Source of the DNA: an uncultured Pseudomonadota bacterium
GTDB lineage: Bacteria; Pseudomonadota; Alphaproteobacteria; RF32; CAG-239
Direction of reading: 5' to 3'
NCBI GenBank assembly: GCA_902799835.1
Contig: CADCCF010000001.1
Coordinates: 186,001-250,000, forward strand
Length of the DNA: 64,000 nt
The notes below the pieces were generated by a model that was not told the origin of the DNA, did not search any database, and was given only the letters and a program-made list of their open reading frames with translations. Positions within the stretch are counted from its first letter, which is position 1. Each line of letters opens with the position of its first letter. This document shows, one piece after another, positions 44,300 to 62,416 of this stretch. The position numbers were made by a program, and so were the translations under genes.

Positions 44300-44833
44300 A
44301 TGATAAATTATAAAAAAATATTTTTCTGCTTGCTTGCCTCGATTTTGATTATTGGAGGTAATTTTTTGTTTGTGGATAAGGCATGGGCTGCAGGTAAGTA
44401 TGGAGGAACTATTAAGTATGACCAAAACACCGGTGACGTAACCGGAGGAAAGCCGAGCACGAGTGTTTTTAATACCAGTGCTCCTCAAGATGTGCCAAGT
44501 AAAACAGATAATTCCAATGCTACTGATGATGGCTATTCCAGCGCCTGCAAGGGAAATACTGGTGATGGTATTTTTTCATCATTGGTTTGCACTGGAAGAC
44601 TGCTTTTTGCCGATTTGCGTGAATTGATTTATATTGTAGCAGGATTTGGTATTATTGCGGTTGGTGTCGGCGGTATATTTGGCAACCTTAACTGGAAATG
44701 GCTGGGTGCGATTATTATTTCGCTGGTGATTATTGCCACGGCTGGTGAGTTGATAACAGCAATGTTGGGTGATGCCCATGGCATTGAAAACGAGTATAGT
44801 GCAAATGCGGTACAAGCCAGTTTACAGGAGTAA
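44300..44833 (+). CDS. VirB2-like pilin (copy 2) with N-terminal insertion
   Basis: 177 residues: signal peptide to about residue 31 (AWA-A), an extra hydrophilic segment of about 70 residues rich in Gly, Ser, Thr and Asn with two cysteines, then the VirB2 core with IYIVAGFGIIAVGVGGIFGNLNWKW and a second helix. The insertion distinguishes it from copy 1 and could be exposed on the filament. A GGGAGGA site precedes the ATG. It ends 17 bases before copy 3. Confidence 0.78.
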   Translation: MINYKKIFFCLLASILIIGGNFLFVDKAWAAGKYGGTIKYDQNTGDVTGGKPSTSVFNTSAPQDVPSKTDNSNATDDGYSSACKGNTGDGIFSSLVCTGRLLFADLRELIYIVAGFGIIAVGVGGIFGNLNWKWLGAIIISLVIIATAGELITAMLGDAHGIENEYSANAVQASLQE

Positions 44834-44850
44834 TTTTGAGGGGAACGGTT

Positions 44851-46548
44851 ATGACAATATCAAATAAACTTTTTCTCAAAAACTTAATAATATTTATCAT
44901 AGTTTTTATGGTGGTCAATCTGCTTGAAACCAAAGATGTATGGGCGGCAAGTCAAATTATTGCCGAGGTTCGCGACAAAGCTGCGCATGTTATTGAGCAT
45001 TATAAACCGATTGTATATATATTGGGCGGTTTCGGTTTGGTTTGCGTGGCCTGGGGTGCTATTTTTGGCAAAATGAATTGGAAATGGTTTGCTAATTTGG
45101 CAATTGGTTTGTTTTTGGTTGCTTGGATGGGACATTTGATAGATTACTTCACTAAAAACAAAGCCAGCTCCACTGCCAGTGCAAAATTTAGTTCGACTAG
45201 CAAATTGGTAAAATTCGGTGATACAATCAATAAAAAATCTTTGGCCGACGGAGGAAATTTCTCGTCACTGCAGATAAAGGGGTCAGGTGAAGCCGGTGAG
45301 TATAGTTCCTTGCTTAGTAGCAATCAAGATTCTATTGCTTATTTGGAATCTGATTGGGTCAAAACAGCGATTGAGCGTTCCGGCAATAGCTTATATGCCG
45401 CTCGAGCCGCCAGTACCTTAGTCTCAGGTTCGGCTTATAACATGAAAGACAGCAAAGGGAGCATCGTTGATGCCAAAAAAATCCTGCAAACCGGTAGTGA
45501 TTGGGAAGAAGCGGCTCAAAATGCCGATAAAAAATATAAAGATTTGGTTGCCGCTCGAGCCGGTAGTATGTTGTCTTCAGGTTCAGCCTATAATGTAAAA
45601 GACACCAAAGGTGAAGATTATGATATCAAAGCTGCGCTTCGTCAAGGCAGTGATTGGAAAGAAGCTTCGGACAAATATAAAGATGATATGCATGTTGCCG
45701 GTGTTGGATCTAACCTCGAAAATGGTAGTTTTAAAGGGCCAAATGAAGATGGCACTGAGCATGTGTATCTGGCCGGTGGTAACGCGATGACTAACTTTAG
45801 TAGAGGTTTTTCTAAGGCTGCCGGAGGCTTTGGTGACGCTCAAACCTTTTTTGAATTTGGTAGTTATGACGGCTATGAATTTGGCAACAGCGATTATGCC
45901 CAATATGATATGGCAGATTTGGCCGGTGAAATGATGTATGATACCCAATCAATGATGCTGGGTTATGAGGTCGATGATTATAGCGGTTTGAATACCGAAA
46001 CTCGACGAGGTGATTTTGTGAGTGATAATTTCGATGGTTTGAACACCGAAACACGGAGGTCTTATTCAGGTACGACACTGGGTAACCTGAATACAGGTAG
46101 TAATCTTGTTGGCAACAGTGGTAATGTCGGCAGTGACTGGGCTGATACTGATGTAGCCTATACCGCCAGTAATCTGGTTGATGGTGAGCTCACCTATACC
46201 GATGCCGATGGTGAGCATACTGACAGTGCTGACGGAAATACTCATACCACACTTGCCGGAGCTAATGATGATTACGGCTACCAAGGTGATGTGGATACCA
46301 ATATGAACAGTGCTGATGGCTATCAAAATGTTAACACTAATATGAATAGTGCGGAAGGCTATCAAAATGTTAACACTAATATGAATAGCGCTAGAGGCTA
46401 TCAAAATGTTAACACCAATATGAACAGTGCCGCCGGTTATAAAGACGTCAAAACCAATATGAACAGCCCAGCCGGCTATCGTGATGTCAAAACCAATCTC
46501 AATTCGCCTGCCGGCTATAAAGATGAGGAGACTCATTGGGGTAGATGA
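44851..46548 (+). CDS. VirB2-like pilin (copy 3) fused to a long repeat-rich C-terminal domain
   Basis: 565 residues. The first 105 residues are a full VirB2 unit: signal peptide (to about 33), two helices and the loop FGKMNWKW. The remaining 460 residues are hydrophilic. Two diverged 51-residue repeats (AARAASTLVSGSAYNMKD... and AARAGSMLSSGSAYNVKD...) begin near 45397 and 45550, a partial third near 45697, two GLNTETRR units lie near 45985 and 46036, and six tandem 13-residue repeats (consensus V-x-TNMNSAxGYxN) fill 46291-46524 at the very end. Start at 44851 has AGGGGA upstream. A pilin fused to a surface-like domain is unusual; function unknown. Confidence 0.78.
   Translation: MTISNKLFLKNLIIFIIVFMVVNLLETKDVWAASQIIAEVRDKAAHVIEHYKPIVYILGGFGLVCVAWGAIFGKMNWKWFANLAIGLFLVAWMGHLIDYFTKNKASSTASAKFSSTSKLVKFGDTINKKSLADGGNFSSLQIKGSGEAGEYSSLLSSNQDSIAYLESDWVKTAIERSGNSLYAARAASTLVSGSAYNMKDSKGSIVDAKKILQTGSDWEEAAQNADKKYKDLVAARAGSMLSSGSAYNVKDTKGEDYDIKAALRQGSDWKEASDKYKDDMHVAGVGSNLENGSFKGPNEDGTEHVYLAGGNAMTNFSRGFSKAAGGFGDAQTFFEFGSYDGYEFGNSDYAQYDMADLAGEMMYDTQSMMLGYEVDDYSGLNTETRRGDFVSDNFDGLNTETRRSYSGTTLGNLNTGSNLVGNSGNVGSDWADTDVAYTASNLVDGELTYTDADGEHTDSADGNTHTTLAGANDDYGYQGDVDTNMNSADGYQNVNTNMNSAEGYQNVNTNMNSARGYQNVNTNMNSAAGYKDVKTNMNSPAGYRDVKTNLNSPAGYKDEETHWGR
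46291..46524 (+). repeat. Six tandem 39-bp (13-codon) repeats
   Basis: In-frame units begin at 46291, 46330, 46369, 46408, 46447 and 46486, each 39 bases, encoding V-[DNK]-TN-[ML]-NS-[AP]-x-GY-[QKR]-[ND]. Units 2 and 3 are nearly identical in DNA; units 5 and 6 have drifted most. Only eight codons (including the stop) follow. Such arrays can change copy number by slippage or recombination. Confidence 0.95.
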
Positions 46549-47218: not shown

Positions 47219-47272
47219 AAATTGGTTTATATCATCCCCACTTTGTCCGTGGCTTCAAATCCCACAACCAAC

Positions 47273-47301: not shown

Positions 47302-47305
47302 GTAT

Positions 47306-47396
47306 TGGCGGATAGAGTGGGATTCGAACCCACGGTACCCTTTGGAGGTACACACGATTTCCAATCGTGCGCCTTCGACCACTCGGCCATCTATCC
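47306..47396 (-). tRNA. tRNA-Ser (anticodon GGA)
   Basis: A class II tRNA of 91 bases. The acceptor stem GGATAG/CTATCC closes the molecule, a G discriminator and encoded CCA follow. The anticodon arm CACGATTGGAAATCGTG gives anticodon GGA (reads UCC/UCU), the long variable arm is present, and the T arm carries GGTTCGAATCC. The D arm has the GGCCGAGTGGTCGAAGGC pattern typical of tRNA-Ser. Its 5' side faces the virB3-virB4 operon across 258 bases. Confidence 0.97.
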
Positions 47397-47577: not shown

Positions 47578-47655
47578 GATAACCTTATAAGCAGTATTGC
47601 AAACCGATTGCTAATATCTTATCATTTATTGCGAGATGTGTGCTGGAGAGCTGTT

Positions 47656-47946
47656 ATGCGTGAAATGATACTAAAAGCTGTGGCAAATCCTCCTAAGATA
47701 TTATGGGGGCCGTTTTTGCCTGTTATGCTGAATTTAGGCATTCAGTTTCCGATGCTATTTATGATGGTGGGGACGGTTGATGTTAACCCACTGTGGTTTT
47801 TGATATTGATATTGCTGGGACACACATTTTGCATTTTTTTGGGGGCTAAAGAGCCTCACATTTCCAGCATGATTCAAGCCTTTGGCCAAGCAGCCAAAAA
47901 AAGTACCAACCTTTATAAAGTAAAGGGGAATAAATTTGCGCCCTGA
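47656..47946 (+). CDS. virB3: VirB3-like T4SS protein
   Basis: 96 residues with two adjacent hydrophobic helices near residues 18-60 and a polar C-terminus, the size and topology of VirB3, an inner-membrane component that works with VirB4. The N-terminal stretch with a Pro-Pro before the first helix is typical. The ATG at 47656 has GGAGAG upstream; the longer frame from 47608 has no such site. It overlaps virB4 by 11 bases, the usual virB3-virB4 pairing. Confidence 0.82.
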   Translation: MREMILKAVANPPKILWGPFLPVMLNLGIQFPMLFMMVGTVDVNPLWFLILILLGHTFCIFLGAKEPHISSMIQAFGQAAKKSTNLYKVKGNKFAP

Positions 47947-50365
47947 TTTTGATTTTTTATCGATTTTTGTTGAAGGTCTGTCCGGCTCTGAGATTATTGT
48001 GGCCATCATCGGCTTTATCTCAGCAGCCGCTTTTGCCGGTTTATGGGCAACCAAATTCGGTTATTTGGTTTTGCCGCACCCAACCGAGTCAAGAGTATCT
48101 GACTTTATGCCGTTTGAAAAACTTTTGTCTGACGGAATGACGATTCGTTGTTATAACGGGTCGTTAGCGCGCGTTTTTAGAATCAATGGTGTCGATTTAA
48201 ACTTTGCATCAAGCGAAAAAGTTGCATCAATGATGGAGGCTCGCAAAGCATGGATTGACGGCATGTCTGACTTGCAAATTACTTGCAGAGTTATTACTGT
48301 TCGTGAACGTGTTCCCTTGGAAGATAATGTCAAAAACTTTAATAATCCGCTATTGGAAAAAATCTCCGAGGTTTGGGAAGAAAATGTTGATAGAGTTTTC
48401 TTTAACACACACTATGTTGTTTTATCAGTCCCTGATCGTCGTGAGGCCTTAAAAGATTTGAATTATGCTTCACAAGCATTGACCGCTACTTTGAGTGAAT
48501 ATGGTGTTGAGCCTTTGGCTGAAACAGATGGATCTTCGGCGGCTGATAGTCCTTTTTCGGTTTATGCCAAACTTTGCTCTCCCGTCACAAAACCCAGTCC
48601 TTTGGTGCATGGTGCTCAAGGGGCTCAGCTCAATCAGATGTTGACAGCCGACCATATTCATTTCACTGATGAGAAAGGTATTATTAAATTCTTCTCCGGC
48701 GATAAAGAAGTTTATGAAATTGTGATGGGAATACGTTCTTCCGGTGATTATGTTGATGAAGCCATGACAGCATCTCTTTTGGCATTGGATTGTGAGTTAG
48801 TTTTGCTTCACAATATTCATGCCATATTCAAACCCAAAGCTCGTGCGCTTTTAATGCAGCAACAACGCATGGCTACCATGACCAGTTTTTCATCCAACGT
48901 GGTTGATCAATATAGTGAAGTTTTGGCGGCTATTGAAGATAGTGATGCCGATCACCAGGCCTTAACGGAATATTCCATGACTATATTGTTACGTGGTGCG
49001 AGTGTAGAAGAACTTGATTTCGCCGAAAGTGAAGTTCAACGTATATGCCGCCTGTTTGGTGTGACACCGGTTCGTGAAGGATGGGTTGCTCAGGCATCAT
49101 TCTTCAATCAGTTTCCGACCTATGAAGTTTTGCCACGCAACTATCGCTATCTTTCAAGAGTGGTTGCCTGCTCGGTTTCATTTGATAAACCATCCGAAGG
49201 CTTTTCAAAATCTGACTGGGGAAATGGAGCAATTTCTGTTTTTCGTACCACCTCAGGTTCGGCGTATCGTTTTCAGTTCCACGTGTCATCTGAAGATTCG
49301 GCGGTTGCTCACTGTTGCATTATCGGTCCGACCGGTCAAGGTAAAACTACTTTGCTTACCTTCCTTGCCGGTCAAGCTATGCGTCATGCCGATTTGAGGG
49401 TTTTCTTTTTTGACCGCCACTTGGGTGCGCGCATTTTTACTCATGCTGTCCAAGGAGCTTATATCGGTTTTGATGGTGACGAGAAAAATGTATCACTCAA
49501 TCCATTTGACTGCAGTAATACTCCGAATAATCGCGCCTTTTTGCGTCGTTGGATGCGAGCCATAACTTTAGTCGACGATTCGGTTTCAGAAAAAGAAATT
49601 GCTCGTGCCGTAACTACAGCTTTTGACTATTTGCGTCCGGAAGAGCGCGTTATGACCAATCTTTATAAAAGTTGTTTTTCGCCGACCGGAAATATGCGTC
49701 GCGAATTGTTCAAATGGGTGAATCCTGATCAGTATGGAGCTATTTTTAATGGTACCAGTGATAGCTTGGATTTGAAAAGCAAACGTTTTATGGCTTTTGA
49801 TTTTACGCACATTTTTGAGGATGAAACACTGGCTCCCGCGGTCATTAGCTATATTATGCACCGTATTCAATCAGAGACCGGCGAAACCGGTGTTCCATCA
49901 TTGATTATGATTGATGAAACGGCGCCTATGTTAAAACACCCGATGTTTAGGGATTATTTTATTATCGGTTTGCAAGAAGGACGTAAAAAACGTCAGGCTT
50001 ATTTGTGCGCTTTCCAACAACCAAGCATTATTGATAAATTAGGTGTGGGTGAGGTTATTCGCGGACAATGCCAAACTGTTATATTTTTCCGCAACCCTCA
50101 GGCAATGCCGGAAGATTATGCTAACTGGAATTTAACTGATGCGGAAACTGATTTTATTTTCGGTCGCTCTTATCGCGATTTCCCCTATGCTATTTTACTG
50201 TCGCGTCCTTCAACCGGAGAATCTGTAATTCTGGATGTCGATTTAAGTGGTTTGGGACCATATCTGAAATTGTATAACTCTGGTCGAAAGAATGTTTTGC
50301 TGGTTGAAGAGTTAGTCAAAGAATACGGCGAAGATAATTTTGTTACAAAATATTTAAATATTTAG
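47936..50365 (+). CDS. virB4: VirB4-family T4SS ATPase
   Basis: 809 residues. A short hydrophobic N-terminal helix (about residues 17-38) and the CagE/VirB4 N-terminal domain precede the ATPase core: Walker A IIGPTGQGKTTLLTF near residue 465, FFDRHLGARIF, the LNPFD motif, Walker B LIMIDETAPML near 655, and the GRKKRQAYLCAFQQPS sensor region. VirB4 powers pilus assembly and substrate transfer. The start is TTG at 47936 inside the end of virB3, with AAGGGGA six bases before it; no better start exists nearby. Confidence 0.93.
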   Translation: MRPDFDFLSIFVEGLSGSEIIVAIIGFISAAAFAGLWATKFGYLVLPHPTESRVSDFMPFEKLLSDGMTIRCYNGSLARVFRINGVDLNFASSEKVASMMEARKAWIDGMSDLQITCRVITVRERVPLEDNVKNFNNPLLEKISEVWEENVDRVFFNTHYVVLSVPDRREALKDLNYASQALTATLSEYGVEPLAETDGSSAADSPFSVYAKLCSPVTKPSPLVHGAQGAQLNQMLTADHIHFTDEKGIIKFFSGDKEVYEIVMGIRSSGDYVDEAMTASLLALDCELVLLHNIHAIFKPKARALLMQQQRMATMTSFSSNVVDQYSEVLAAIEDSDADHQALTEYSMTILLRGASVEELDFAESEVQRICRLFGVTPVREGWVAQASFFNQFPTYEVLPRNYRYLSRVVACSVSFDKPSEGFSKSDWGNGAISVFRTTSGSAYRFQFHVSSEDSAVAHCCIIGPTGQGKTTLLTFLAGQAMRHADLRVFFFDRHLGARIFTHAVQGAYIGFDGDEKNVSLNPFDCSNTPNNRAFLRRWMRAITLVDDSVSEKEIARAVTTAFDYLRPEERVMTNLYKSCFSPTGNMRRELFKWVNPDQYGAIFNGTSDSLDLKSKRFMAFDFTHIFEDETLAPAVISYIMHRIQSETGETGVPSLIMIDETAPMLKHPMFRDYFIIGLQEGRKKRQAYLCAFQQPSIIDKLGVGEVIRGQCQTVIFFRNPQAMPEDYANWNLTDAETDFIFGRSYRDFPYAILLSRPSTGESVILDVDLSGLGPYLKLYNSGRKNVLLVEELVKEYGEDNFVTKYLNI

Positions 50366-50446: not shown

Positions 50447-52627
50447 ATGAAAATGTTGCGAATTATAGTATTGATGACAATGTTATTGCTTCCGATGCGG
50501 GCGCAAGCAGCAATAACGATTGATTTTGGTGCTATTGCCGGAACGATTCAGTCTGTCGTCACCAATGTAAAGGTCAAAATTGACCGTGTTAAAGCCAATG
50601 TTATGGAGTGGAAAATTGTCCAAACATTGGGAACCGCTTTGAAAAGTGTTACAGAATTTTTCCAAAAACTTGAACAGGAATATAAAAAGCAAAAGGCAAA
50701 ATTTGATAAATGGAGAGAAGATATAACTCGCTTCTTATCTGATATGGAAGCTTATTACGCCGCAACTATGGATGTTTATCAAAAGGCACTGGATACAGCA
50801 GAATATCTGGCAGAAATCGGAACACGTTTTCAAGCTTATTGGAATGAAGGTGAATCTATCGTAAAAGATAGCGGTGAAACCATAGCGATGTGTGGCAGTA
50901 ATTTGAAAGAGTTGATTAATGTTGTAAAACACGCCAAAGAACAGTGGGCAGAGCTTGAAGAAAACTATGAAAGATATGAGGCTAATAAAGAATATCTTCA
51001 ACAGCAACTGAACGATTTGGAAGCTCATGAAGAATCTAATGCCGTCACCAATGAAATAAGAAATTTGCGCGATCAGTTGCAAAATCATATGGCGCAAATT
51101 GAAAATTTAAAACAGGGGATTCGCAGCATAAAAAATCAATTTTATATGCATATATCCGAGCAAAAAAGTTTGATTTACGCTTGTAGGTATAATGTTCAAG
51201 CCATTAGAGCGCGTGTAAAAAGATTGATTTGTAATCTGAGTGTTGGCGAACTGAAAGGCTTTGAGAATCAGGCTAAAAAGCTTGGTAGTAGTCTTAATAA
51301 CTTAAACAAAAAAATGGAAAATTTGCAAATTGACGCTTATGAACTTGAAAACAACGATGCGAGCGGTTGTGTGGATTATTGTACAGAATGTTCATATGGC
51401 ACACCTTTTGCCTCAGATCAAAAAGCTGCTGAAAAATCGCAAGACGAGGCTTGTAGGAAATGCGCCGAATGTAAACCATTACCTTATTCAAGTGCCTGTG
51501 AAGGAAAAGAAAATGAAAATTGCAAAAGTGCCGTAGCAATTATCAAAGTAAATACATTGACCAACGGATCAGTACAATGTGAAAGAGAAATTGAACAATT
51601 GGTAAAAGGTCCGGATGATTATAGTTGTTCTAAATATAAGCAGATGTGTACGGATGGAAATAATGAAGCTTGTCAGATAAGTTGTAGCTCAATGTGTGGC
51701 AGCATACCGGCAAATGATGATATTTGCTGTGAAATAGCAAGTAGAAAATGTTATGGTGGACACAGTGGTTATTGTAAAAACCTTGAAGAAAACTGTCCAA
51801 CTTATAGAGCAGATAAATCAGCATCAGAATGTAAAACATTAAAAGAGGACTGCGACAGAGCAAGAGGGGAGCTTATTGAAGGTAGTGAAATGGAAGAGCC
51901 GGTAATGTGTGAAACATACAGGATAATGTGTGCCGGCCAATACAGCTATAATTACTCAATTTCACGATCTTCAGCCGTAGCATATGCTGATGTTGATTTG
52001 AGCAACGTAAAAAACATTAAAAGTGGTACGAATGAGGCCGGCGTTTTTTTACTTCCCAACAGTTTGGCTATCTGCTGTGAGCTTAATGCCGATACAGCTA
52101 TGCAGGAAGGAGCACTGCGTGATTGCATAACTCGTTATAATGATGTGATGAATCGCAACAATTATGACACAAATCCTGATGATCCTGATGCTAAAATTAG
52201 TGAAGCCGATAAAAAGTTTTTTCAGTGTCTGAGGAAAGATATGGGCTCCGAAGAGTTTGATGATAAGGTGAAACAGTCTGATAAAGAACTTGCCGGTATT
52301 TCTCTTGAAAATGCTCTAGCTGAATACTTGGCTGCCGGATATTTGGAGGCAATGCAGGCATATAATGACAGTTTCTCTTTTAAGAATGATCAAATAGATC
52401 CGGTGGTCAATACCAAGAACAAAGATATGCAAGCTGCTTGGGATATCGCCATTGACCTAAATTTAAAAGTAGGTGACAGGCTTAATGCAATCAGCAATTT
52501 GTGGGCGCGAGAACAAATGACCAGATCGTTTATGAATGTAAAAAATTATCGAATGTCTGAAAGTTTTATTTCTACATGTCAAAATCCGGATAAAGCCGAA
52601 AATGCTACCGGTGATAAAGGGGAATAA
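50447..52627 (+). CDS. Large exported coiled-coil and cysteine-rich protein of the T4SS locus
   Basis: 726 residues. The signal peptide ends with AQA near residue 21. Residues about 25-280 are helical with long Lys/Glu/Gln coiled-coil stretches. Residues about 300-490 are very cysteine-rich, with recurring C-x2-C and C-x3-C pairs such as CVDYCTEC, ACRKCAEC and CQISCSSMC; a less Cys-rich helical C-terminus follows. Many disulfides in the periplasm or outside the cell are expected. I do not recognise a family. It sits right after virB4, where virB5 (minor pilin) is expected. AGGAG precedes the ATG. Confidence 0.75.
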   Translation: MKMLRIIVLMTMLLLPMRAQAAITIDFGAIAGTIQSVVTNVKVKIDRVKANVMEWKIVQTLGTALKSVTEFFQKLEQEYKKQKAKFDKWREDITRFLSDMEAYYAATMDVYQKALDTAEYLAEIGTRFQAYWNEGESIVKDSGETIAMCGSNLKELINVVKHAKEQWAELEENYERYEANKEYLQQQLNDLEAHEESNAVTNEIRNLRDQLQNHMAQIENLKQGIRSIKNQFYMHISEQKSLIYACRYNVQAIRARVKRLICNLSVGELKGFENQAKKLGSSLNNLNKKMENLQIDAYELENNDASGCVDYCTECSYGTPFASDQKAAEKSQDEACRKCAECKPLPYSSACEGKENENCKSAVAIIKVNTLTNGSVQCEREIEQLVKGPDDYSCSKYKQMCTDGNNEACQISCSSMCGSIPANDDICCEIASRKCYGGHSGYCKNLEENCPTYRADKSASECKTLKEDCDRARGELIEGSEMEEPVMCETYRIMCAGQYSYNYSISRSSAVAYADVDLSNVKNIKSGTNEAGVFLLPNSLAICCELNADTAMQEGALRDCITRYNDVMNRNNYDTNPDDPDAKISEADKKFFQCLRKDMGSEEFDDKVKQSDKELAGISLENALAEYLAAGYLEAMQAYNDSFSFKNDQIDPVVNTKNKDMQAAWDIAIDLNLKVGDRLNAISNLWAREQMTRSFMNVKNYRMSESFISTCQNPDKAENATGDKGE

Positions 52628-52628
52628 G

Positions 52629-53450
52629 ATGATAAACAGAGCGCTTTTTGTTTGGTTTTTGATGCTAGGACTAAGTTGCAATATCCTAGTAGCTAATGCT
52701 GATGATGCAGAGGTTAAGCGGAGTAACGGTTATAGTGCTCAGGGTGAACTTTTAATTCCTTATGATATAGTCAAACGCTGTAACTTGGGAGATGGTGGTA
52801 CTTTAGAGTTAACAGATGGATGTTTATATGCTTTGGCTTGTGATAAACATCAAGTCTTTCAAGAATGGGTTCGAACCAAAAAAGGTGAAGGTAAAGACGT
52901 AAGTATTGATGAAAATGAATATAACGGAGATTATGAAATTAGTTGTATGATGGCTAAATATACCAAAGCTGATTTGGACTACATCATTTCGCGACTTATC
53001 TCAGGAGGTAATCACGAAAATTTGGCAAAAGAAAAAGCCGGCTATGAAATTGCGCCAACTTTGGGTGCGGAAGGAGTAGCAGTGGATGCCTGTTCTTCAT
53101 TAAAAACACAATGTGATGAAGCAAAAATTGAACACAGCGATACATCTACGCAACCTATACCTTGTTTTATGTATGAAAAATGTGAGGAATCTTTACAACA
53201 AATTCAGGCAATCAAAGATTGTTCTGATGATCAGGGCAGTACACGTTGTTCTATTCAGGCTAATAACACACTAACCGCTGACAGCACCCAAGTATTATCA
53301 GATATAGTTCACATCAAATCTATGATGAACAGAAATGAAATTGCCAACAACATAGTCAACATAATATCTAAAATGGAGATAGATAAGGGAAAGTGTTTAG
53401 ATGATATAAAAAAGTCAGCTGAATCAGGTACCAAAGGAGAAAGCAAATGA
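52629..53450 (+). CDS. Exported cysteine-containing protein of the T4SS locus
   Basis: 273 residues from the ATG at 52629, one base after the preceding stop codon, with AAAGGGGA upstream. Signal peptide ends near residue 23 (VANA-D). The mature protein has about ten cysteines, pairwise spaced (for instance CFMYEKC), and a helical C-terminus. No known family. Overlaps the next gene by four bases (ATGA), so it belongs to one translational unit with its neighbours. Confidence 0.7.
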   Translation: MINRALFVWFLMLGLSCNILVANADDAEVKRSNGYSAQGELLIPYDIVKRCNLGDGGTLELTDGCLYALACDKHQVFQEWVRTKKGEGKDVSIDENEYNGDYEISCMMAKYTKADLDYIISRLISGGNHENLAKEKAGYEIAPTLGAEGVAVDACSSLKTQCDEAKIEHSDTSTQPIPCFMYEKCEESLQQIQAIKDCSDDQGSTRCSIQANNTLTADSTQVLSDIVHIKSMMNRNEIANNIVNIISKMEIDKGKCLDDIKKSAESGTKGESK

Positions 53451-54532
53451 ATAAGAGAATAATATGTTTTGTGTTCATTATGCTTGGCTCTGTATTTATA
53501 GCTAAAATTTCTTATGCCGGTACAGATATTATTAATACAGTGTTGTTGAAAGCAGGCAATGTTATAGATAAAGTTTCGCAAAAATATGAGGGTATTTCGG
53601 TGAAAGTGCGCGAACTGACCGAAGGAAAGTTGTTTGCGCTTGACGAAAATACCGCCGATATGATTCAAAAAGCCAAAGATCAAAAAGATTCTATTCAAGA
53701 GAAAATCGATAAAGTTCGCGCCGCAAAAGAATTTATGACTCATGCGGATGAAGCAATACTTGATCGTTACAATACCATGTTAAGTCAGCTTGAAGCCTCG
53801 GATACTCAAGCAAGAGATATTGTTAAACAAAGAGGGTGGACATTTGGCAAGGATAATACTGATGATAACAGTGATGATGACTATTCCGACGGTAGTGATG
53901 ATTATGGTTTTGATGACGGGCAGGCACAAATAATTTCTAAAGATAGTGTTGGCAGTGAAAATTATAGTAGTGATGACAGTAAAAAGACCAATGGCAAAAT
54001 TGATAGCGATGAAGTTAGCAGCCAATATGATGATTCTGAAGACGAATATTATTATAGCGGCGACATGGATGATGATTATGACGATAGCGGTTCTGTTATT
54101 ACATCTAATGATAATTCAAAACAAAATTCCGACAATAACATAAAAACAACCGAGTCAAAAGAAATTAAAAAGTCAGCAGATTCTATCGAAAATTCGACTG
54201 CTCAATCAACAACAAGAAAAAAATTTAGTTCCTTAGATAGTGATAATTCAGACAAAAAGCAGGTCGATGTTTCCTCAAATTTGAACAAAATGGCATCATC
54301 TGAGCAAAAGACATCGCCAAATAAAGCGAGTATTGGCAATTCGCAAAAAATAAGCACTTTGGATAGCGCAAGCAAGACATCGAAAGAAACACCAGTAAAT
54401 ACTGATTTAAAACAACAAAATATTTTGTTAAAGGATAAAGTCTCATCTGCTCCCAGCGTCCGCAGAAGATCTTTTACATCAGAAAAAGCTGCATCCAACG
54501 AAATGGAGGGATCAAATGTTGCAAAAAACTAG
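53447..54532 (+). CDS. Exported protein with helical N-domain and acidic Asp/Ser-rich tail
   Basis: 361 residues: signal peptide (ending SYA-G near 25) and an amphipathic helical domain of about 110 residues containing QKAKDQKDSIQEKIDKVRAA. A 190-residue low-complexity region follows, first rich in Asp, Ser, Gly and Tyr, then in Ser, Lys, Thr, ending basic. The helical part has the look of VirB5/TrbJ-type minor pilins but no diagnostic motif. Starts within the previous gene's stop and overlaps the next gene by 17 bases. Confidence 0.72.
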   Translation: MNKRIICFVFIMLGSVFIAKISYAGTDIINTVLLKAGNVIDKVSQKYEGISVKVRELTEGKLFALDENTADMIQKAKDQKDSIQEKIDKVRAAKEFMTHADEAILDRYNTMLSQLEASDTQARDIVKQRGWTFGKDNTDDNSDDDYSDGSDDYGFDDGQAQIISKDSVGSENYSSDDSKKTNGKIDSDEVSSQYDDSEDEYYYSGDMDDDYDDSGSVITSNDNSKQNSDNNIKTTESKEIKKSADSIENSTAQSTTRKKFSSLDSDNSDKKQVDVSSNLNKMASSEQKTSPNKASIGNSQKISTLDSASKTSKETPVNTDLKQQNILLKDKVSSAPSVRRRSFTSEKAASNEMEGSNVAKN

Positions 54533-55037
54533 TTTGATAGTTATTGGATTGATATTGATGTTTTTTTTAGTTTCTGAAGCTTTTGCCGGTAGCAAAATTA
54601 AGGGGCAACCCGACCAATTATGGCTCACTCCAATGGGAGATGATAATATCGAAAATACCGGCTATAATCGTTGTCGTGTCATAAAAACAATGAAACCTGG
54701 AGAAAAACGAGTTATGCAAACCGTTAATAATACCCAAACATTGTTAGGCAGATATGCTTCCGAGTTGTATTTTCAAGCAGTAAAAGCCAATTTTGAAATT
54801 GACCAAGAAACACCTGATGATGTAATGACAAGCACGGCAGAACTTAGTTTAATGAATCGTCAAATAATTGCTAGGTTAGCCAATATTGCTAATCGTCTTA
54901 ATATTATAGTATCTTTAGAATCGCGCACAGCTGCCCTTAACAACATTAAAAAGATTACTAACCTATCAGGCAGCGTATATAACGACTATGAGTATGATGC
55001 TGAAAAAGAAACATGCGGCCTTAAAAGCGGAGGATAA
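54516..55037 (+). CDS. Exported helical protein of the T4SS locus
   Basis: 173 residues with a signal peptide (ending AFA-G near 24), a beta-like segment with one Cys, and a long helical region (LMNRQIIARLANIANRLNII) near the C-terminus, ending with a second Cys. No family recognised. GGAGGG lies upstream of the ATG at 54516, inside the previous gene's end. The Asn-Arg-rich helix resembles the C-terminal part of the protein from 52629 (MMNRNEIANNIVNIISKM), hinting at a shared ancestry. Confidence 0.68.
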   Translation: MLQKTSLIVIGLILMFFLVSEAFAGSKIKGQPDQLWLTPMGDDNIENTGYNRCRVIKTMKPGEKRVMQTVNNTQTLLGRYASELYFQAVKANFEIDQETPDDVMTSTAELSLMNRQIIARLANIANRLNIIVSLESRTAALNNIKKITNLSGSVYNDYEYDAEKETCGLKSGG

Positions 55038-55042
55038 TTTTT

Positions 55043-56542
55043 ATGAATAAAACATGTAATATATGGTTTTTATTTATTTTAGCAATCTTTTTGACCTTTC
55101 CGTTGCGACAGGCTGAAGCTGTTATTCCGTTTGAAATTAGTTTAGCGGAAACTGCCGGTAAAATAAGCACCTGGATACAAGAAAAAATTATTTTGGTGCA
55201 AGCAAAAATTACCAGTATCAATGAGAGCAAAATAGCCAAAGGTATAGGCGATGGACTGAAAACGATTAAAGAAGTTCGAGATTGTGTCAAGGAACAATAC
55301 AATGGTGGCACTCCTCCATCTCAAAACAATAATGATGAAAATGATTCTCAAAATAGTGGTCGTGGAACTACCTCTCAAAAATGTCAAAAATACGTTCAAA
55401 AATATAAGTTTTTGGCTGATGTTGTAAGAATGGCAGGAGATGCTAAAAGATTTATGGGTTCTATTAAGGATTCAAAAACCTATAAAATTGTCCAGCTTAC
55501 TCGAGCCATTGCTGATGATGCTATTAAAATAACTCAGCTTGATGAATATCGCGAAGATCGCATTAACCGAATAAAAAATCAAGCCGAGATTGATGCTGAT
55601 ACGCTTAATGGTAAAATTGAGATGGTAAAAGACGACCTGAAAATTATGAAAGAAGACCATAAAAAAATGGCAGCTAGTGCTGATTTGCTTCAAAAGGGAC
55701 AAATGGAAGCTGAAGAGTTGCAAATGGAGCAATATATTATAAAACTTGAAGCCGGTAAATTCCAAATCAAAGAGAAACTTGCTCGAGATATTATCACCAT
55801 AAATGCTAAATTTGCCGAGACTACAGCTGAAATTGTTAAACGTAGAGAAAAAAATATTGCTGAAGTTTTGGAATTAAAGTCAAAACTCAAAGAAGATAAA
55901 GATAAAAAGAACAATAAAAAAACAAACACAAGTAACAGTGGTAACCAGGCTCCGTCAGAACAAACACAAACACCTGTTGAAATAGTAGCGGCTGCTCAAC
56001 AAAAATACAGTCCCAGCATAGATATTGCTGATACTATTGCCGGATCAGAAAAGCGTATTGCCCAGATTAATGAAGATATAGAGGTTAGCAATGTTGCTGG
56101 TTTTAACCAAGCTAATGTCTATTTATCAGATTCAATTGACCCGGTTAATGACTCTTCGTCGGATTTGGAGTTGGGAGAAACTGCCGAAGGCAAATCGGAA
56201 ACAGTTCAGACCGCGATAGACAACACACTATTACAAATAGACATGATTGCCAAGATAATCCAAATGGAGTTAACGAATTTAGAAACCGAAACTATGGAAA
56301 AAATTATGCAGAATGTTAACTTCAAAATTGAGCGTCGGTACAACAATGACAATGCTTTAGTTACCGATGTTTGCAATTATGAAGTGAAAGAACAAGAAAA
56401 TAAAAAGAGCGAAGCAGAGGAAACTTCTACTAGGGAAATACCTTCATCAGACAAGGGTGCGGAAGCCTCAAATCAAGCTGAAGAAGAAAGCGACACCCAA
56501 AAAGATGATAAGACTCAAATAAACGAAGTTATTGTTGGATAA
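55043..56542 (+). CDS. Exported coiled-coil protein of the T4SS locus
   Basis: 499 residues. Signal peptide ends near residue 22 (AEA-V). An amphipathic N-domain (TAGKISTWIQEKI...AKITSINESK) resembles those of the proteins from 50447 and 53447. A long coiled coil follows at about residues 165-290, then a Ser/Thr/Gln-rich spacer, more helix, and an acidic C-terminus. Three cysteines. No family recognised; an exported structural role in the apparatus is inferred from context only. AGGATA precedes the ATG. Confidence 0.7.
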   Translation: MNKTCNIWFLFILAIFLTFPLRQAEAVIPFEISLAETAGKISTWIQEKIILVQAKITSINESKIAKGIGDGLKTIKEVRDCVKEQYNGGTPPSQNNNDENDSQNSGRGTTSQKCQKYVQKYKFLADVVRMAGDAKRFMGSIKDSKTYKIVQLTRAIADDAIKITQLDEYREDRINRIKNQAEIDADTLNGKIEMVKDDLKIMKEDHKKMAASADLLQKGQMEAEELQMEQYIIKLEAGKFQIKEKLARDIITINAKFAETTAEIVKRREKNIAEVLELKSKLKEDKDKKNNKKTNTSNSGNQAPSEQTQTPVEIVAAAQQKYSPSIDIADTIAGSEKRIAQINEDIEVSNVAGFNQANVYLSDSIDPVNDSSSDLELGETAEGKSETVQTAIDNTLLQIDMIAKIIQMELTNLETETMEKIMQNVNFKIERRYNNDNALVTDVCNYEVKEQENKKSEAEETSTREIPSSDKGAEASNQAEEESDTQKDDKTQINEVIVG

Positions 56543-56557
56543 AAGGGGGAAAGAAGA

Positions 56558-59500
56558 ATGAAGAAATATTTTTGGATGGCTATAATCGGTTTGATGACGT
56601 TTATGATGCCAAAATCGTCTTCTGCCTTTTTATCAAAAGCAATAGAGGAAGCATATAATGTTATTCCGATTTCTCCGGTTGTAAATTTTGCCGAAGACCT
56701 CACAGAAACCGGAAAAATGTTGGGCAAAACTTATGCTCAGGTTCAATCTTTGACTAATCAAATCAAGAAAGATGCCACTAGCTTAAAATCTTCGCTTACT
56801 TCAGCATTTTCATCAGTGGCAGGTGTTTTTTCTTTTATCAACATCGGTGGAACGCAAAATACTTTAATGTGCGGTAGTGTTTTAGGTTCGGTAAATGTAA
56901 GCAAAATGTCCCTTAAGTTGCAAGAAATATTGCTAAGTTATAAGCCGGGGCAAAAAGAACTGGTTCAGCGGCGAAGACTAAGTTTTTATATGGACAATAT
57001 TTATAATATCTATGCCGCAGTCCAAGTTATGAAAGAGGAGCTATCGGAAAGCGGAGAAGTCGGCTCAAAAATTATAAGTGCCAAAGAGTGTTGTTCTCAA
57101 GGTGGGCAGGGTGAAGCTTGCGGAATATCAGGGAACAACGAAATTTTAGCAAAATATGGTTATGCTCTTTCCACATTAGAAGATTTGATTAAAATGTGGG
57201 AAAGAGTAGCGGCATTAAAAGCTCAAAAGCAGGCTATTGACGTCATAATGTCAATTGATGTCCAACCTGAAGTTAAAGCAGAAAAGGTATCTTTGCTTGA
57301 AAGGAATAATTCTTCAGTTTTGTATAGTTCATATCGCAAAACTTATAGTGCTCCAATTGGGTATGCACAGATGCTTTATAAAAGTAACAGGGCTAGTCTG
57401 TCAGATGTCGAGCAGACCAAAGATGAGACGCAAAAAGTTAAAAAGAGCCGTTTTGCAGGTATGGGGTTGAATTTTGTTGCGCCAAAAATGCCTGACGACA
57501 CATCTCCTATGTTGGACAACATTGAGAATATGGAAGCTTTTAATGAATTGTCGCAAGTAGAAGATGCTGTGTCAGAAACTTTATCTCTCCACAATTTTAT
57601 CAGAGATATTGATAACTATCGCGCCACTGCAGAGCAATATAAAGCAATGCAGGAAAATTATCAAAAAAAACTTAATATGTTGAGGGATTCAAACCAATGC
57701 GGTAAAAAATATGTTGGTAGATATTTTAATAGTATTGACCAAACATGGTCCGGTGTGGCTTTGAACAACAACAATGTTAATGATTATGATTTACGTAAAG
57801 GAATATCCGGTTGGGCTTTTAATGCCTATGAAGTGGCAAAAGGTGCTGAAACTACGGTTAACGAGGATGAAGAAGGTAATGTCAGCTATTCTGATAATTC
57901 ATCCGTAAAGGTTGATGACTTAGAAACCGACAATGACACAATAGATGATAAAGACGTTGCTGATAATACCAAAGGTGCTGATTTGGAAGAATCTGAATCT
58001 AAAGTGAAAAAGAATAAAGACAGTTATGACAAAGGCGAAGGAGTGAGTGCCTCAACTTCCGACAAAACCAAGGAAGAAAATCGCAAAGCCACAATGTTGG
58101 CGTGGCAAATTGGTGCCGAAGCATCTAAAGCTTTGAGTAAAGATGCTCCTTCTTGGGGAACACCTAATAATCGTAAAATGATATGGAATGATACTAAAAT
58201 TTTTTATAATCAATATTTGCAAAATAAATATGGCAGAAAAAATCTTGATGGACAGGAAGGAAATATCAGAGCTTATCTGAAAAGATTTACTGAAAGTGAT
58301 GTCGTTGATGTAATATTATCTGTACTTAGTAATGCTGAAGAACATCTCAGTCTTAGCCAGACTGAATATCAAACGCAGCTAAATGAAAAATATGCAGCTG
58401 TTGATACGGCCTTTCAAACGTTATTTAGCCAAAGTAACGCAACCAGCACTCAAGCAGATGCTAATTTGTTACAGCAGCAAAAGAATCTCAAAGCCAAAAT
58501 TGATGAAATTACTACAAAAATTAAAAGCTTAAGCGATGAAGTCGGTGATATAGCCAGCAACTCGGAAGACCAATCTTTCTCGGAAACGGACCGCGCATCA
58601 TCAAAAGAAATTAATTATTTGGATGACAACGCGTCTAAAAACAAATTGCAAAAATATGATGAAATATCATCTGAAATGTCGGAGAAAGTCGCTCAGAATA
58701 AAAAAGATAATAATTTTGATGCTTTGAAAAAGCAGTTGGATCAAGCTAAATCGCAAAGAGATGCTTTGCAAAAACAAATGAATAATTTGGATTTACAAAT
58801 TGAAGCTTCAAAAGCTGAGAAGCAAAGTTCTGGAACAACAGCTAGTTCATCAATTCCGCAAAGCGTATTGGCTTTATGCAATGGGTTTAATCAGGAGAAA
58901 GGTAGAATTTTGCAACAGTACACTCAAAATTTAGGAGGGCGTTTTGATAGTGTTGCACAAATTTTAAATATATCTTCAGATAATTTGCCATCGTTTAAGG
59001 AAGCAATCACATCTGCTGCTGGCGAGATAGTCAGCGAAATTATGGGAAATGTAGATTCTATAGTTGATGACGCTTATTCACAGATGCTAGCTTTAGGGGA
59101 AGATTTATACTTACCGACATCTGCGGCACAAGTCGCATCTATTCACCAAAATATGATAAATCGTCTAAAAGCTATGACCATAACTAAGAGTATTGCTGGA
59201 TATAGCTTAAATGACTTGGTTGTTTTTGCCGACTTAGCAACCTTAGATACTTCACCTGAAACCGAAGGCTTTTTTGTCGGAGCTTTACCTAGAGCCCGTG
59301 ACCTTAAAGCTCCTTATCCGATGCGCGATTTAAGTCAACCGCCTGTTCGTGAAGTTTTTCACTTTGATATGACAGACTATTCAAATGTTAAGGCTTATAG
59401 TTCAAAAAACTATAGTACATATGAAAGTAAAAAGAGTAAATTAAAGTTGCCGATGTATGACAAAGATGAACTTTTAGCTGATATGCGTAAATTACGCGGA

Positions 59501-60598
59501 ATCAGTCGCGGTGACTTTTTAAATTACGGTGGAGAAATTCCTAAGATATGGCAACTTATGTTGCAAGATTATTCTTTCATAGAAAAGAAATTTAATCTTC
59601 AAAGTGCATTAACGCAAGGATGCGAAGCTGCAGCATTTTTACGCGGTGGAATTATGCCTTGTCGAATTGGTGACAGCGGAGTGGTTTTGGACGTTAATGT
59701 GGTTAAAGAAGAGGATGAGGACAACGAAGACAGTTATATTTATACATATGACAATAATGATGATCAGTATATTAAGCGTACAGATCTCAATCCTCAGAGT
59801 TTGCCTAAATGTTTGCTGATTGAGCTTAAGAAGAACAAGCCGTTTTTGACTTTTTATGATGACAATGTAAATATTGATTCAAGTATTTTTGGTAATGATA
59901 ATGAGCCAGCCGAGGTAAATTGTCCGTACAGTGAACTCGGTATGCTTTTAGATTCTGACGAAAATAATAATATTTCATTTAAAAGCACGGTTTATGAAGT
60001 ATTTAATGATAGCTTCAAAATAGAGGATACTAGTCCTAAAAAATTAAGCCAGGATCAGAAAAACCAATTGGCCATTGCACAACAGGCAGAACTCTCGCGC
60101 AACCAAATTGGTGACTTTTTACGGCAGGCTGAATCTGAAAAGAAGATGAAGCAATCACTAGAAGAAATGAAACAAAAATATGATGATCAAATCAAAGAAT
60201 TGCGAGAACTTTTGGCTGACTATGGATTTACTGTAAGTAACAATTATGATCTTACCAAACCGGCCGATTATAATTTAACCATAAGTCGTTTGAAGGCGGC
60301 CAAAAATCAATCGTTAAATAAAGTAAATACGTTATTGAGGCAGATTAAAGTGGATAATAGCAATAAGCCGGCTAAGGTAAAAAAAGCTACCATAGATAAA
60401 ATAGTGAGTATTTTACAGCTTGATACCGAAGCAGATTTAGAGTTGTCTATGTCGTCTGCCGATGATAATGATATTAATGCCGAACTGAAAAGGGCAAAGA
60501 CTGACAGGGAAGCAACTGAAAAATATAAAAAGAAAGTAAAAGATGAGAATGATGAAGAATATAGAGATTTAGAGGAGGCGTATTGCGCTAATTATTAG
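56558..60598 (+). CDS. Giant (1346-residue) exported coiled-coil protein of the T4SS locus
   Basis: The largest gene of the window. Signal peptide ends near residue 23 (SSA-F). An N-terminal helical part contains four cysteines (MCGSVLG, CCSQGG, ACGISG). The middle (about 610-780) and the end (about 1150-1330) are long coiled coils, and a more globular segment lies at about 880-1120 with another few Cys (GCEAAAFL, MPCRIG). No transmembrane helix beyond the signal and no enzyme motif are seen. Family unknown. It ends immediately at the VirB8-like start (stop at 60596-60598, ATG at 60599). GGGGGA precedes its own ATG. Confidence 0.78.
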   Translation: MKKYFWMAIIGLMTFMMPKSSSAFLSKAIEEAYNVIPISPVVNFAEDLTETGKMLGKTYAQVQSLTNQIKKDATSLKSSLTSAFSSVAGVFSFINIGGTQNTLMCGSVLGSVNVSKMSLKLQEILLSYKPGQKELVQRRRLSFYMDNIYNIYAAVQVMKEELSESGEVGSKIISAKECCSQGGQGEACGISGNNEILAKYGYALSTLEDLIKMWERVAALKAQKQAIDVIMSIDVQPEVKAEKVSLLERNNSSVLYSSYRKTYSAPIGYAQMLYKSNRASLSDVEQTKDETQKVKKSRFAGMGLNFVAPKMPDDTSPMLDNIENMEAFNELSQVEDAVSETLSLHNFIRDIDNYRATAEQYKAMQENYQKKLNMLRDSNQCGKKYVGRYFNSIDQTWSGVALNNNNVNDYDLRKGISGWAFNAYEVAKGAETTVNEDEEGNVSYSDNSSVKVDDLETDNDTIDDKDVADNTKGADLEESESKVKKNKDSYDKGEGVSASTSDKTKEENRKATMLAWQIGAEASKALSKDAPSWGTPNNRKMIWNDTKIFYNQYLQNKYGRKNLDGQEGNIRAYLKRFTESDVVDVILSVLSNAEEHLSLSQTEYQTQLNEKYAAVDTAFQTLFSQSNATSTQADANLLQQQKNLKAKIDEITTKIKSLSDEVGDIASNSEDQSFSETDRASSKEINYLDDNASKNKLQKYDEISSEMSEKVAQNKKDNNFDALKKQLDQAKSQRDALQKQMNNLDLQIEASKAEKQSSGTTASSSIPQSVLALCNGFNQEKGRILQQYTQNLGGRFDSVAQILNISSDNLPSFKEAITSAAGEIVSEIMGNVDSIVDDAYSQMLALGEDLYLPTSAAQVASIHQNMINRLKAMTITKSIAGYSLNDLVVFADLATLDTSPETEGFFVGALPRARDLKAPYPMRDLSQPPVREVFHFDMTDYSNVKAYSSKNYSTYESKKSKLKLPMYDKDELLADMRKLRGISRGDFLNYGGEIPKIWQLMLQDYSFIEKKFNLQSALTQGCEAAAFLRGGIMPCRIGDSGVVLDVNVVKEEDEDNEDSYIYTYDNNDDQYIKRTDLNPQSLPKCLLIELKKNKPFLTFYDDNVNIDSSIFGNDNEPAEVNCPYSELGMLLDSDENNNISFKSTVYEVFNDSFKIEDTSPKKLSQDQKNQLAIAQQAELSRNQIGDFLRQAESEKKMKQSLEEMKQKYDDQIKELRELLADYGFTVSNNYDLTKPADYNLTISRLKAAKNQSLNKVNTLLRQIKVDNSNKPAKVKKATIDKIVSILQLDTEADLELSMSSADDNDINAELKRAKTDREATEKYKKKVKDENDEEYRDLEEAYCANY

Positions 60599-61366
60599 AT
60601 GAGTGAAAATGAAATTTCTAATCAACAAATTACAAGTAATTCGGATATAAAAGCAATTTCCGGAAATACATCCGGTCAACCTCAATATATTGAACAAATT
60701 GATCAAACCGAACGTTCGGCCAAGATGTTTTATTATCTATGGATTTCAAGATTTTTTGTCCTTACGGCAGTCTTGACAGTAAGTTTCTTAGTTCTAGCAT
60801 CTTTAGCTTTGTTCAGATTAGCTCCGCGTGTTACGGTTGAACCTTTATTGTTGATTAAAAACAGCAGTTCTGATGAGTTGGTCAGTAATGAGGGTATTAC
60901 TTTTGATATGCCATCTAAAGATTTGCTGATGAAAATGTATATTAAACAGTATGTCACATTGCGTAATACGATAATTCATGATCGTACGGAAATGCAAACC
61001 AGATGGATGGCCGGTGGCATGGTAAATTTTCTGTCTTCGCCGACAGTATATAATGAATTTGGCGCTCCTTTAGTGAATACCTGGGAACAAATCATTAGCC
61101 AGCCAATTACCAGAGAAGTTGATGTTACATCAATTACAAGACAAGGTGGTGAACGCTCGCAAATTTGGAAGGTTGATTTTAAAACATATGACTTGTCCAA
61201 TCAGGCAGGAAAAGAATCAAGTGCAGACAGTATTAAAGTAAGATACTGGACATCATCAATCACTGCAAGATTTATTCCTGACAGAGCTTTTTCATTCTAC
61301 CGCTTAATAAATCCGCTTGGTTTTACAGTTACTCGCTACTCACAAACGGAAGTTAACATATTCTAA
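60599..61366 (+). CDS. VirB8-like T4SS protein (copy 1)
   Basis: 255 residues: a polar N-terminal cytoplasmic segment of about 45 residues, one membrane helix at about 55-78, and a periplasmic domain of about 175 residues. Features typical of VirB8/TrbF are RVTVEPLL right after the helix, LLMKMYIKQYVTLRNT, and KVRYWTSSITARFIP with a terminal NPLGFTVTRY. VirB8 is a core bridging component of the inner-membrane complex. It has no ribosome site of its own; the nearest AGGAGG is about 20 bases upstream, so translation is probably coupled to the giant gene before it. Confidence 0.83.
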   Translation: MSENEISNQQITSNSDIKAISGNTSGQPQYIEQIDQTERSAKMFYYLWISRFFVLTAVLTVSFLVLASLALFRLAPRVTVEPLLLIKNSSSDELVSNEGITFDMPSKDLLMKMYIKQYVTLRNTIIHDRTEMQTRWMAGGMVNFLSSPTVYNEFGAPLVNTWEQIISQPITREVDVTSITRQGGERSQIWKVDFKTYDLSNQAGKESSADSIKVRYWTSSITARFIPDRAFSFYRLINPLGFTVTRYSQTEVNIF

Positions 61367-61672: not shown

Positions 61673-62416
61673 ATGGTAGAAGAGATTAAGTATGGACAAC
61701 CACAACCGCGTATGATTGCAGGAAGGCGCGCCCCCAATGCAACGGCTCCACATCGCTCTTCTAAAAGTAGCGATAATTTGTTTGTCGCTAATGTAGCCGA
61801 AAAACGTTATCTTTGGACTGCTCGTGCTTTTGCTGTTATTACAGCGCTGAGCTTGTGTTGTAATATCGTATTGATTTTAGCCATTTTTCAAGTCGTTCCT
61901 TTGTACAGAATAGAACCGTTTCTGTTAAGTTTTCAGAATCAATCGGAGCAGGTCTATAATATTATGCCGGTGACCGGAGAGCTGCGCAATCGTCGTGCAA
62001 TCACCGAAGTGTTTGTAAGAGATTATGTGTTGCAGCGTAGCGCTTTTACCCGTGATGCAGATGTTGCAAAATCTCGTTGGACGCCAGGGGGCACAATTCA
62101 AGAAATGTCAACTGCTAAGATATACCAAGAATTTTGGGATAATATTGGTAAAAAAGCTTTGTCAGTTATTCAAGAAAAAGGCATGGAACGCAAGGTTAAG
62201 ATTCTTTCCATAAATGAATTGACTAATGGAGTATGGCAAGTTGAGTATGAAGCAAGCGACACTTATCCGGATTCTACAAAGCCAGAGATAAGCTACTGGA
62301 CTGCTTCATTAAGTGTTATGTACCGCCGTAAAACGGTTAAATATGGTGAGAGGTTGAAAAATCCGTTAGGGTTTACTGTTACAAAATATGCGTTGAGTCG
62401 CAACAGCGTGGAGTAG
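61673..62416 (+). CDS. VirB8-like T4SS protein (copy 2)
   Basis: 247 residues with the same layout as copy 1: a basic N-terminus of about 50 residues, a membrane helix near 55-78, then VVPLYRIEPFLLSF and a periplasmic domain with VFVRDYVLQRSAF, RWTPGG (copy 1: RWMAGG), ISYWTASLSVMYR and a final NPLGFTVTKY identical in pattern to copy 1. The two are clear paralogues, diverged, flanking the lipoprotein gene. An IcmL/DotI protein would have a similar topology, but the VirB9-like neighbour favours VirB8. Confidence 0.84.
   Translation: MVEEIKYGQPQPRMIAGRRAPNATAPHRSSKSSDNLFVANVAEKRYLWTARAFAVITALSLCCNIVLILAIFQVVPLYRIEPFLLSFQNQSEQVYNIMPVTGELRNRRAITEVFVRDYVLQRSAFTRDADVAKSRWTPGGTIQEMSTAKIYQEFWDNIGKKALSVIQEKGMERKVKILSINELTNGVWQVEYEASDTYPDSTKPEISYWTASLSVMYRRKTVKYGERLKNPLGFTVTKYALSRNSVE

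What the first reader, a model, noticed from the sequence alone, without database searches (positions are those of the whole stretch)
50447..60598. Ten-kilobase block of unassigned exported proteins in the virB5 position
Five to six consecutive, translationally coupled genes all encode signal peptides followed by amphipathic or coiled-coil helices; two are strongly cysteine-rich and one is 1346 residues. None matches a T4SS family I know, yet they lie between virB4 and virB8, where virB5/virB6 normally sit. The similar opening helices in three of them (about 30-40 residues after the signal) suggest a duplicated, expanded VirB5-like family. This is the strongest candidate for undescribed biology here.
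Basis: partly seen in the sequence, partly recalled or inferred. Interest (0 to 1): 0.8.

Follow-up and report, generated by a model that had tools for sequence, protein, structure and literature searches.

The report
Expanded VirB5 pilus-tip protein array
Six neighbouring exported-protein genes in a gut/rumen alphaproteobacterium look like a multiplied and fast-diverging version of VirB5, the protein at the tip of type IV secretion pili, with the largest copy fused to a big protein domain that no database recognises.

Summary
Six tightly packed genes (A–F, 50447–60598) lie between virB4 and a virB8 pair. All encode exported soluble proteins, and F has 1346 residues. A's N-domain matches genuine VirB5 (PF07996) at E=5e-6, as strongly as the accepted VirB5–TrbJ pair. 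Orthologues of D, E and F's N-terminus in another family are VirB5-sized, and E's orthologue aligns with VirB5 over 158 columns. B is homologous to A's C-terminal domain. C's membership is unproven. The block is in every genus member with a readable locus, and other genera keep A-D-E-F. F was found in 128 of 153 genomes (16 of 17 genera) of the order. F is a VirB5-like module fused to an undescribed large partner, which in another family is a separate gene beside the array. Block proteins share 20–32% identity within the genus (VirB4 86%) under purifying selection. VirB6 is also multiplied, elsewhere. Best reading: a vertically inherited, multi-subunit T4SS stalk/pilus-tip apparatus for target contact. 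Adhesin function and fold are unshown; both structure models failed (pLDDT 37 and 41).

The parts
50447..52627 (+). Gene A: exported VirB5-like protein (726 aa). VirB5-type N-domain, coiled coil, Cys-rich lineage-specific insert, C-terminal domain homologous to B. Occupies the virB5 position.
   Evidence: A N-domain vs PF07996 VirB5 profile E=5e-6, z=22.6 vs column-shuffled profile; C-domain vs outgroup VirB5-size proteins E=1.5e-5
52629..53450 (+). Gene B: exported copy of A's C-terminal domain (Cys-rich in this subclade). Found only in the window's genus among the loci read.
   Evidence: A_C vs B E=1.3e-20; still P=98 with two ambiguous members removed; absent from the other genera examined
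53447..54532 (+). Gene C: exported; N-terminal helix, coiled coil, acidic disordered-looking tail. Found only in the window's genus among the loci read; VirB5 relationship unproven.
   Evidence: C_N vs E_N E=0.0027, but C_N vs A_N equals the reversed control
54516..55037 (+). Gene D: short exported protein with the VirB5-type C-terminal helical hairpin.
   Evidence: D vs f74 second VirB5-size protein E=1.4e-5; D vs outgroup VirB5-like profile E=9e-6; A_C vs D E=5.8e-7
55043..56542 (+). Gene E: exported coiled-coil protein; orthologue of the third VirB5-size protein of family f74.
   Evidence: E_N vs A_N E=1.8e-7; E_N and E_C vs S3 E=2e-4 and 4e-4; S3 vs VirB5 E=2.8e-5 over 158 columns
56558..60598 (+). 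Gene F: 1346-aa exported fusion of a VirB5-like N-module (about residues 24-232) to a large undescribed partner.
   Evidence: F_N vs separate fourth VirB5-size protein S4 E=7.4e-6; 128/153 order genomes, 16/17 genera; no Pfam domain shared by the 22 members
43822..44175 (+). VirB2-like pilin 1
   Evidence: PF04956 TrbC/VirB2 E=2.4e-8
44300..44833 (+). VirB2-like pilin 2
   Evidence: PF04956 E=2e-4, below cut-off
44836..46548 (+). VirB2-like domain with a long repetitive C-terminal extension
   Evidence: PF04956 E=4e-4, below cut-off
47608..47946 (+). virB3
   Evidence: PF05101 E=0.015, below cut-off; position before virB4
47936..50365 (+). virB4 ATPase
   Evidence: TIGR00929 E=4e-111
60599..61366 (+). 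virB8a
   Evidence: PF04335 E=1.5e-13
61673..62416 (+). virB8b
   Evidence: PF04335 E=6.5e-26

Best explanation
The block is an expanded set of VirB5-like proteins of a chromosomal, apparently vertically inherited type IV secretion system. The likely ancestral layout, still seen in family f74, is four tandem VirB5-size exported proteins followed by a separate partner protein. In the window's family the fourth is fused to that partner, giving giant F. In the window's genus B (a copy of A's C-domain) and C were added. By analogy with VirB5, the products are exported by Sec, assemble on the periplasmic face of the (here also multiplied) VirB6 platform, and ride on the VirB2 pilus as a large heteromeric stalk/tip that contacts the target cell; their outer parts evolve fast. 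Shown: gene order, export-type sequence, VirB5-profile similarity for A and for E's orthologue, homology links A-B-D-E-F_N, the F fusion, rapid divergence under purifying selection. Inferred: direction of the fusion, stalk/tip assembly, target contact, heteromerisation.
For: Position directly after virB4 and before virB8 in every readable genus locus, and A-D-E-F in most other genera read. A_N vs VirB5 profile E=5e-6, score 40.1 vs 8.6 (sd 1.4) for column-shuffled profiles; the accepted VirB5-TrbJ pair gives E=4.2e-5 in the same test. S3, E's orthologue, vs VirB5 E=2.8e-5 over 158 columns. D, A_C, E_C and B match the outgroup VirB5-like profile at 9e-6, 1.5e-5, 1e-3 and 2.5e-3; without its VirB5 member that profile matches a PF07996 protein at 4e-7; reversed controls score 9-15. 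F_N matches a separate VirB5-size gene in f74 (E=7e-6). A VirB5 HMM hits 9 block proteins and 0 of 364 other ORFs at E<=0.01. The 8 genus members without a VirB4 match also lack F. Median identity 20-32% vs 86% for VirB4; dN/dS 0.06-0.27 vs 0.01-0.04 for VirB3/4/8 in the closest pair. VirB5 forms a pentamer on VirB6 and then the pilus tip (PMC12624023).
Against: No block protein passes a curated VirB5/TrbJ cut-off, and PF07996 finds nothing in the window's genome. The direct A-VirB5 match covers only about 43 residues after the signal peptide. F_N's direct match to VirB5 (score 20.1) is no better than that of the F partner (20.5), so F rests on transitive links. C is unresolved. A, E and F are far longer than VirB5. 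The structure models failed. No experimental localisation exists.
Confidence: 0.72

Rival explanations
1. They are system-specific envelope or periplasmic scaffold proteins, as in other expanded T4SSs. VirB5-like helices are reused, but the proteins do not sit on the pilus tip.
For: Long coiled coils in A, C and E, F's large size, and other enlarged envelope parts such as two beta-flower-repeat VirB10-like proteins of 1102 and 1523 aa.
Against: A and E's orthologue show VirB5-profile similarity. Divergence far exceeds that of VirB3, VirB4 and VirB8, which suits exposed parts better than internal scaffold.
Confidence: 0.17
2. They are exported cargo or effectors encoded in the operon rather than machine parts.
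For: Rapid divergence, size, Cys-rich insert in A and lack of known domains.
Against: All carry N-terminal signal-like segments, as expected for Sec export rather than VirD4-dependent delivery. Order and number are largely fixed across genera, and F is present in 16 of 17 genera. Effectors usually vary in content and location.
Confidence: 0.07
3. The similarity is convergent: signal peptides followed by amphipathic or coiled-coil helices give spurious matches to a helical family.
For: A-C scores equal the reversed control, so such artefacts do occur here. Coiled-coil families dominate A's NCBIfam hits.
Against: The other key pairs exceed reversed and column-shuffled controls by a wide margin. 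Signal peptides were removed. Matches are colinear at the mature N-terminus, and orthologues in other families are VirB5-sized in the same position.
Confidence: 0.04

Closest known systems
VirB5 / TraC / TrwJ (PF07996, TIGR02791)
   Same: Position after virB4, exported, helical, N-terminal IPxxD-type helix profile, C-terminal helical hairpin; profile E=5e-6 for A and 2.8e-5 for E's orthologue.
   Different: 4-6 distinct paralogues instead of one; A, E and F much longer than about 220 aa; curated cut-offs not met; F carries a large unrelated partner.
TrbJ (TIGR02780) and DUF4141 (PF13605)
   Same: Weak N-terminal matches: A of G006 to TrbJ_Ti E=2.6e-4; the first block protein of G034 to DUF4141 E=8e-7, TIGR02791 E=0.0015 and TrbJ E=0.0027.
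   Different: All below cut-off and, in G034, limited to the N-terminus; the DUF4141 match includes the signal peptide.
Bartonella Trw T4SS with tandem trwL (VirB2) and trwJ (VirB5) copies
   Same: Multiplied VirB2 and VirB5 in one locus; copies considered variant surface-exposed pilus components, studied for adhesion to host erythrocytes (PMC3406051).
   Different: Trw copies vary in number between species as tandem trwL and trwJIH duplications. Here order and number are largely fixed, paralogues are highly divergent, VirB6 is not interspersed, and F is a fusion.
Rickettsia rvh T4SS
   Same: Alphaproteobacterial, vertically inherited, with multiple VirB6 genes.
   Different: Rickettsia lacks virB5 (PMC2653234); this system multiplies it.

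Membership tests
VirB5 (PF07996/TIGR02791) | Gene lies between virB4 and virB6/virB8 | tested here: met
   All readable genus loci and other genera
VirB5 (PF07996/TIGR02791) | Sec-type signal peptide and no other membrane segment | tested here: met
   Hydropathy scan of A-F and orthologues, a heuristic rather than SignalP; weakest for F
VirB5 (PF07996/TIGR02791) | Passes the curated HMM cut-off | tested here: not met
   so A-F are called VirB5-like, not filed as PF07996 members
VirB5 (PF07996/TIGR02791) | Significant profile-profile similarity to VirB5 | tested here: met
   A_N E=5e-6; E orthologue S3 E=2.8e-5; S1 E=0.0014. D, B and F_N only through intermediates; C not shown
VirB5 (PF07996/TIGR02791) | Length about 200-260 aa | tested here: inconclusive
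   Met by orthologues in f74, G034 and G036; not by window A, E and F
VirB5 (PF07996/TIGR02791) | Three-helix-bundle fold with globular appendage; pentamer | tested here: inconclusive
   AlphaFold2 models of F 24-330 and D had pLDDT 37 and 41 with two-row alignments
VirB5 (PF07996/TIGR02791) | Located at the pilus tip / target-cell contact | not testable with these tools
   Needs microscopy
VirB6 (PF04610) | Polytopic membrane protein with TrbL domain | tested here: not met
   No TM-like segments in window A-F beyond the signal; TrbL matches lie elsewhere
Bartonella-type trwJIH tandem amplification | Repeated units with VirB6 and VirB7 interspersed, copy number varying between species | tested here: not met
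   A-D-E-F order across most genera read, no TrbL in the block

The most novel reading that the evidence does not exclude
The T4SS builds a heteromeric stalk and pilus tip. Several distinct VirB5-like subunits (probably four ancestrally) sit on several distinct VirB6 subunits (four tandem genes in several of these genomes) in place of the homomeric VirB5/VirB6 pentamers. The F partner is a new tip module of an order of uncultured gut/rumen alphaproteobacteria.
Probability: 0.3. Interest if true: 0.8.

Novelty: new variant of a known kind. Interest (0 to 1): 0.55.

Why it matters
VirB5 is normally one small protein; how it recognises or pierces a target cell is unresolved. A lineage-wide set of divergent VirB5-like subunits plus a giant fused partner, alongside multiplied VirB6, is a natural experiment on tip architecture and suggests heteromeric stalks can exist. 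It would also explain about 10 kb of unassigned genes recurring in uncultured gut and rumen alphaproteobacteria, and it gives F's partner, seen in several families, a likely functional context.

Tried and rejected
Structure prediction: F residues 24-330 and D were folded with the only two-row alignments allowed; pLDDT 36.6 and 41.2, so no fold search was run. PDB sequence searches with family profiles gave only coiled-coil or chance hits. Viral-contig search with VirB4: nothing. Plasmid searches with window F and the separate F partner: nothing. A-C similarity rejected because the reversed control scored as high. An apparent A-B 'fusion' in G008/G021 was read as A's own C-domain matching B, and A-B was retested without them. 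VirB6 in the block was rejected. Single-sequence HMM scans of VirB5-size outgroup proteins were mostly uninformative. An in-house TrbJ profile gave weak results. Literature searches for this lineage's T4SS found nothing.

Full report
WHAT IS THERE. Between virB4 (47936-50365) and two virB8 genes (60599-61366, 61673-62416) lie six consecutive + strand genes, A to F. They are packed with gaps of -17 to +15 bp, mostly with a ribosome-binding-site-like sequence, so an operon is likely. Each product starts with a signal-like hydrophobic segment (weakest in F) and has no further TM-like segment in the window. Upstream are three VirB2-like pilins and VirB3. Downstream, beyond the window, are VirB9, two beta-flower-repeat VirB10-like proteins and VirB11. 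Four VirB6-size genes sit at contig positions 1134-8352, and three of them match TrbL. A VirD4 candidate lies on another contig.

GENES, NOT CHANCE ORFS. The window is part of a 1.5 Mb genome; the nearest named relative is the uncultured MAG RUG10873. Orthologues of A and C-F were assigned in all 22 same-genus loci that could be read, and of B in 20, in the same order. In G008 and G021 the B match is A's own homologous domain, so B is taken as missing there. In the G000-G026 pair dN/dS is 0.06-0.27, i.e. purifying selection.

LINKAGE AND DISTRIBUTION. In the genus, 8 genomes without a VirB4 match also lack F; one fragmented genome has VirB4 without F. F was found in 128 of 153 genomes and 16 of 17 genera of the order, and, in shorter form outside the order, among the 17 of 385 genomes with a match in a class-wide draw that includes the window's own lineage. 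In most other genera of the family that were read, the block is A-D-E-F, so B and C are best read as additions in the window's genus.

LIKELY ANCESTRAL FORM. In family f74 (G434, G340, G106, G511) virB4 is followed by four proteins, mostly 225-270 aa (S1-S4), and then a separate 630-670 aa protein matching F. S4 matches F's N-terminus (E=7.4e-6), S2 matches D (1.4e-5) and S3 matches E's N- and C-parts (2e-4, 4e-4). S1 corresponds to A by position. Window F is therefore best read as a fusion of a VirB5-size module with the partner; that f74 keeps the older state is an inference. G034 and G036 show intermediate layouts.

IS IT VIRB5? Single-sequence scans do not reach any cut-off, and PF07996 finds nothing in this genome. 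I collected 26 genuine PF07996 proteins, removed signal peptides and used hhalign. A_N vs VirB5: E=5e-6. S3 vs VirB5: E=2.8e-5 over 158 columns. The positive control, VirB5 vs TrbJ: E=4.2e-5. Against 40 column-shuffled VirB5 profiles the z-scores are A_N 22.6, S3 19.4, TrbJ 13.4, S1 9.7, F_N 6.4, D 5.3, E_N 3.5 and A_C 3.1. An independent C-terminal route agrees: a profile of VirB5-size outgroup proteins matches a PF07996 protein at 4e-7, and with that protein included it matches D at 9e-6, A_C at 1.5e-5, E_C at 1e-3 and B at 2.5e-3. Internal links: A_C-B 1.3e-20, A_C-D 5.8e-7, A_N-E_N 1.8e-7. Weak points: A's direct match is about 43 residues, F_N rests on transitive links, and C is unresolved because A-C equals its reversed control.

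DIVERGENCE. Median pairwise identity within the genus is A 22, B 20, C 21, D 22, E 23 and F 32%, against VirB4 86, VirB3 77, VirB8a 64 and VirB8b 71%. dS is of similar size across most of the locus in the closest pair (0.70-1.05; VirB3 0.37), so amino-acid change, not mutation rate, is elevated. This is what exposed pilus components would show, but it does not prove exposure.

MECHANISM. In studied systems VirB5 forms a pentamer on VirB6 and becomes the pilus tip that meets the recipient (PMC12624023). In Bartonella, tandem trwJ (VirB5) and trwL (VirB2) copies are considered variant surface-exposed pilus components, studied for their role in adhesion to erythrocytes (PMC3406051). By analogy, the A-F products probably form an enlarged stalk/tip on a multiplied VirB6 platform. 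Four TrbL matches in several of these genomes beside four ancestral VirB5-like proteins suggest, but do not show, heteromeric rings.

LIMITS. Signal peptides were judged by hydropathy only. hhalign E-values are pairwise and were judged against reversed and shuffled controls.

Noticed in passing
L014:5104-12985 (G000 C1 about 250103-257984): Two adjacent large proteins (1102 aa with an ASH-like domain, 1523 aa with TrbI/VirB10) carry many beta-flower repeats (PF21785, PF21784); possible spacer repeats in a VirB10-type channel.
   Followed up: no
window 44836-46548: 570-aa protein with a VirB2-like N-terminus and C-terminal tandem repeats (TNMNSAxGYQNV-like); third VirB2-like gene in a row.
   Followed up: no
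L115:1134-8352 (G000 C1): Four tandem VirB6-size genes (424, 993, 443, 557 aa), three matching TrbL; in G002 the cluster lies downstream of virB11 and the lipoprotein genes.
   Followed up: partly
G004 and G009: These genomes lack VirB4 and F matches but keep one or two TrbL matches, which may be remnants of a lost T4SS.
   Followed up: no
L014:16952-18202: 417-aa lipoprotein next to the T4SS, conserved in relatives and looking (by eye only) like a secretin N-domain protein; no Pfam match.
   Followed up: no
window 46679-47396: An FMN reductase gene and tRNA-Ser(gga) sit between the VirB2-like genes and virB3.
   Followed up: no
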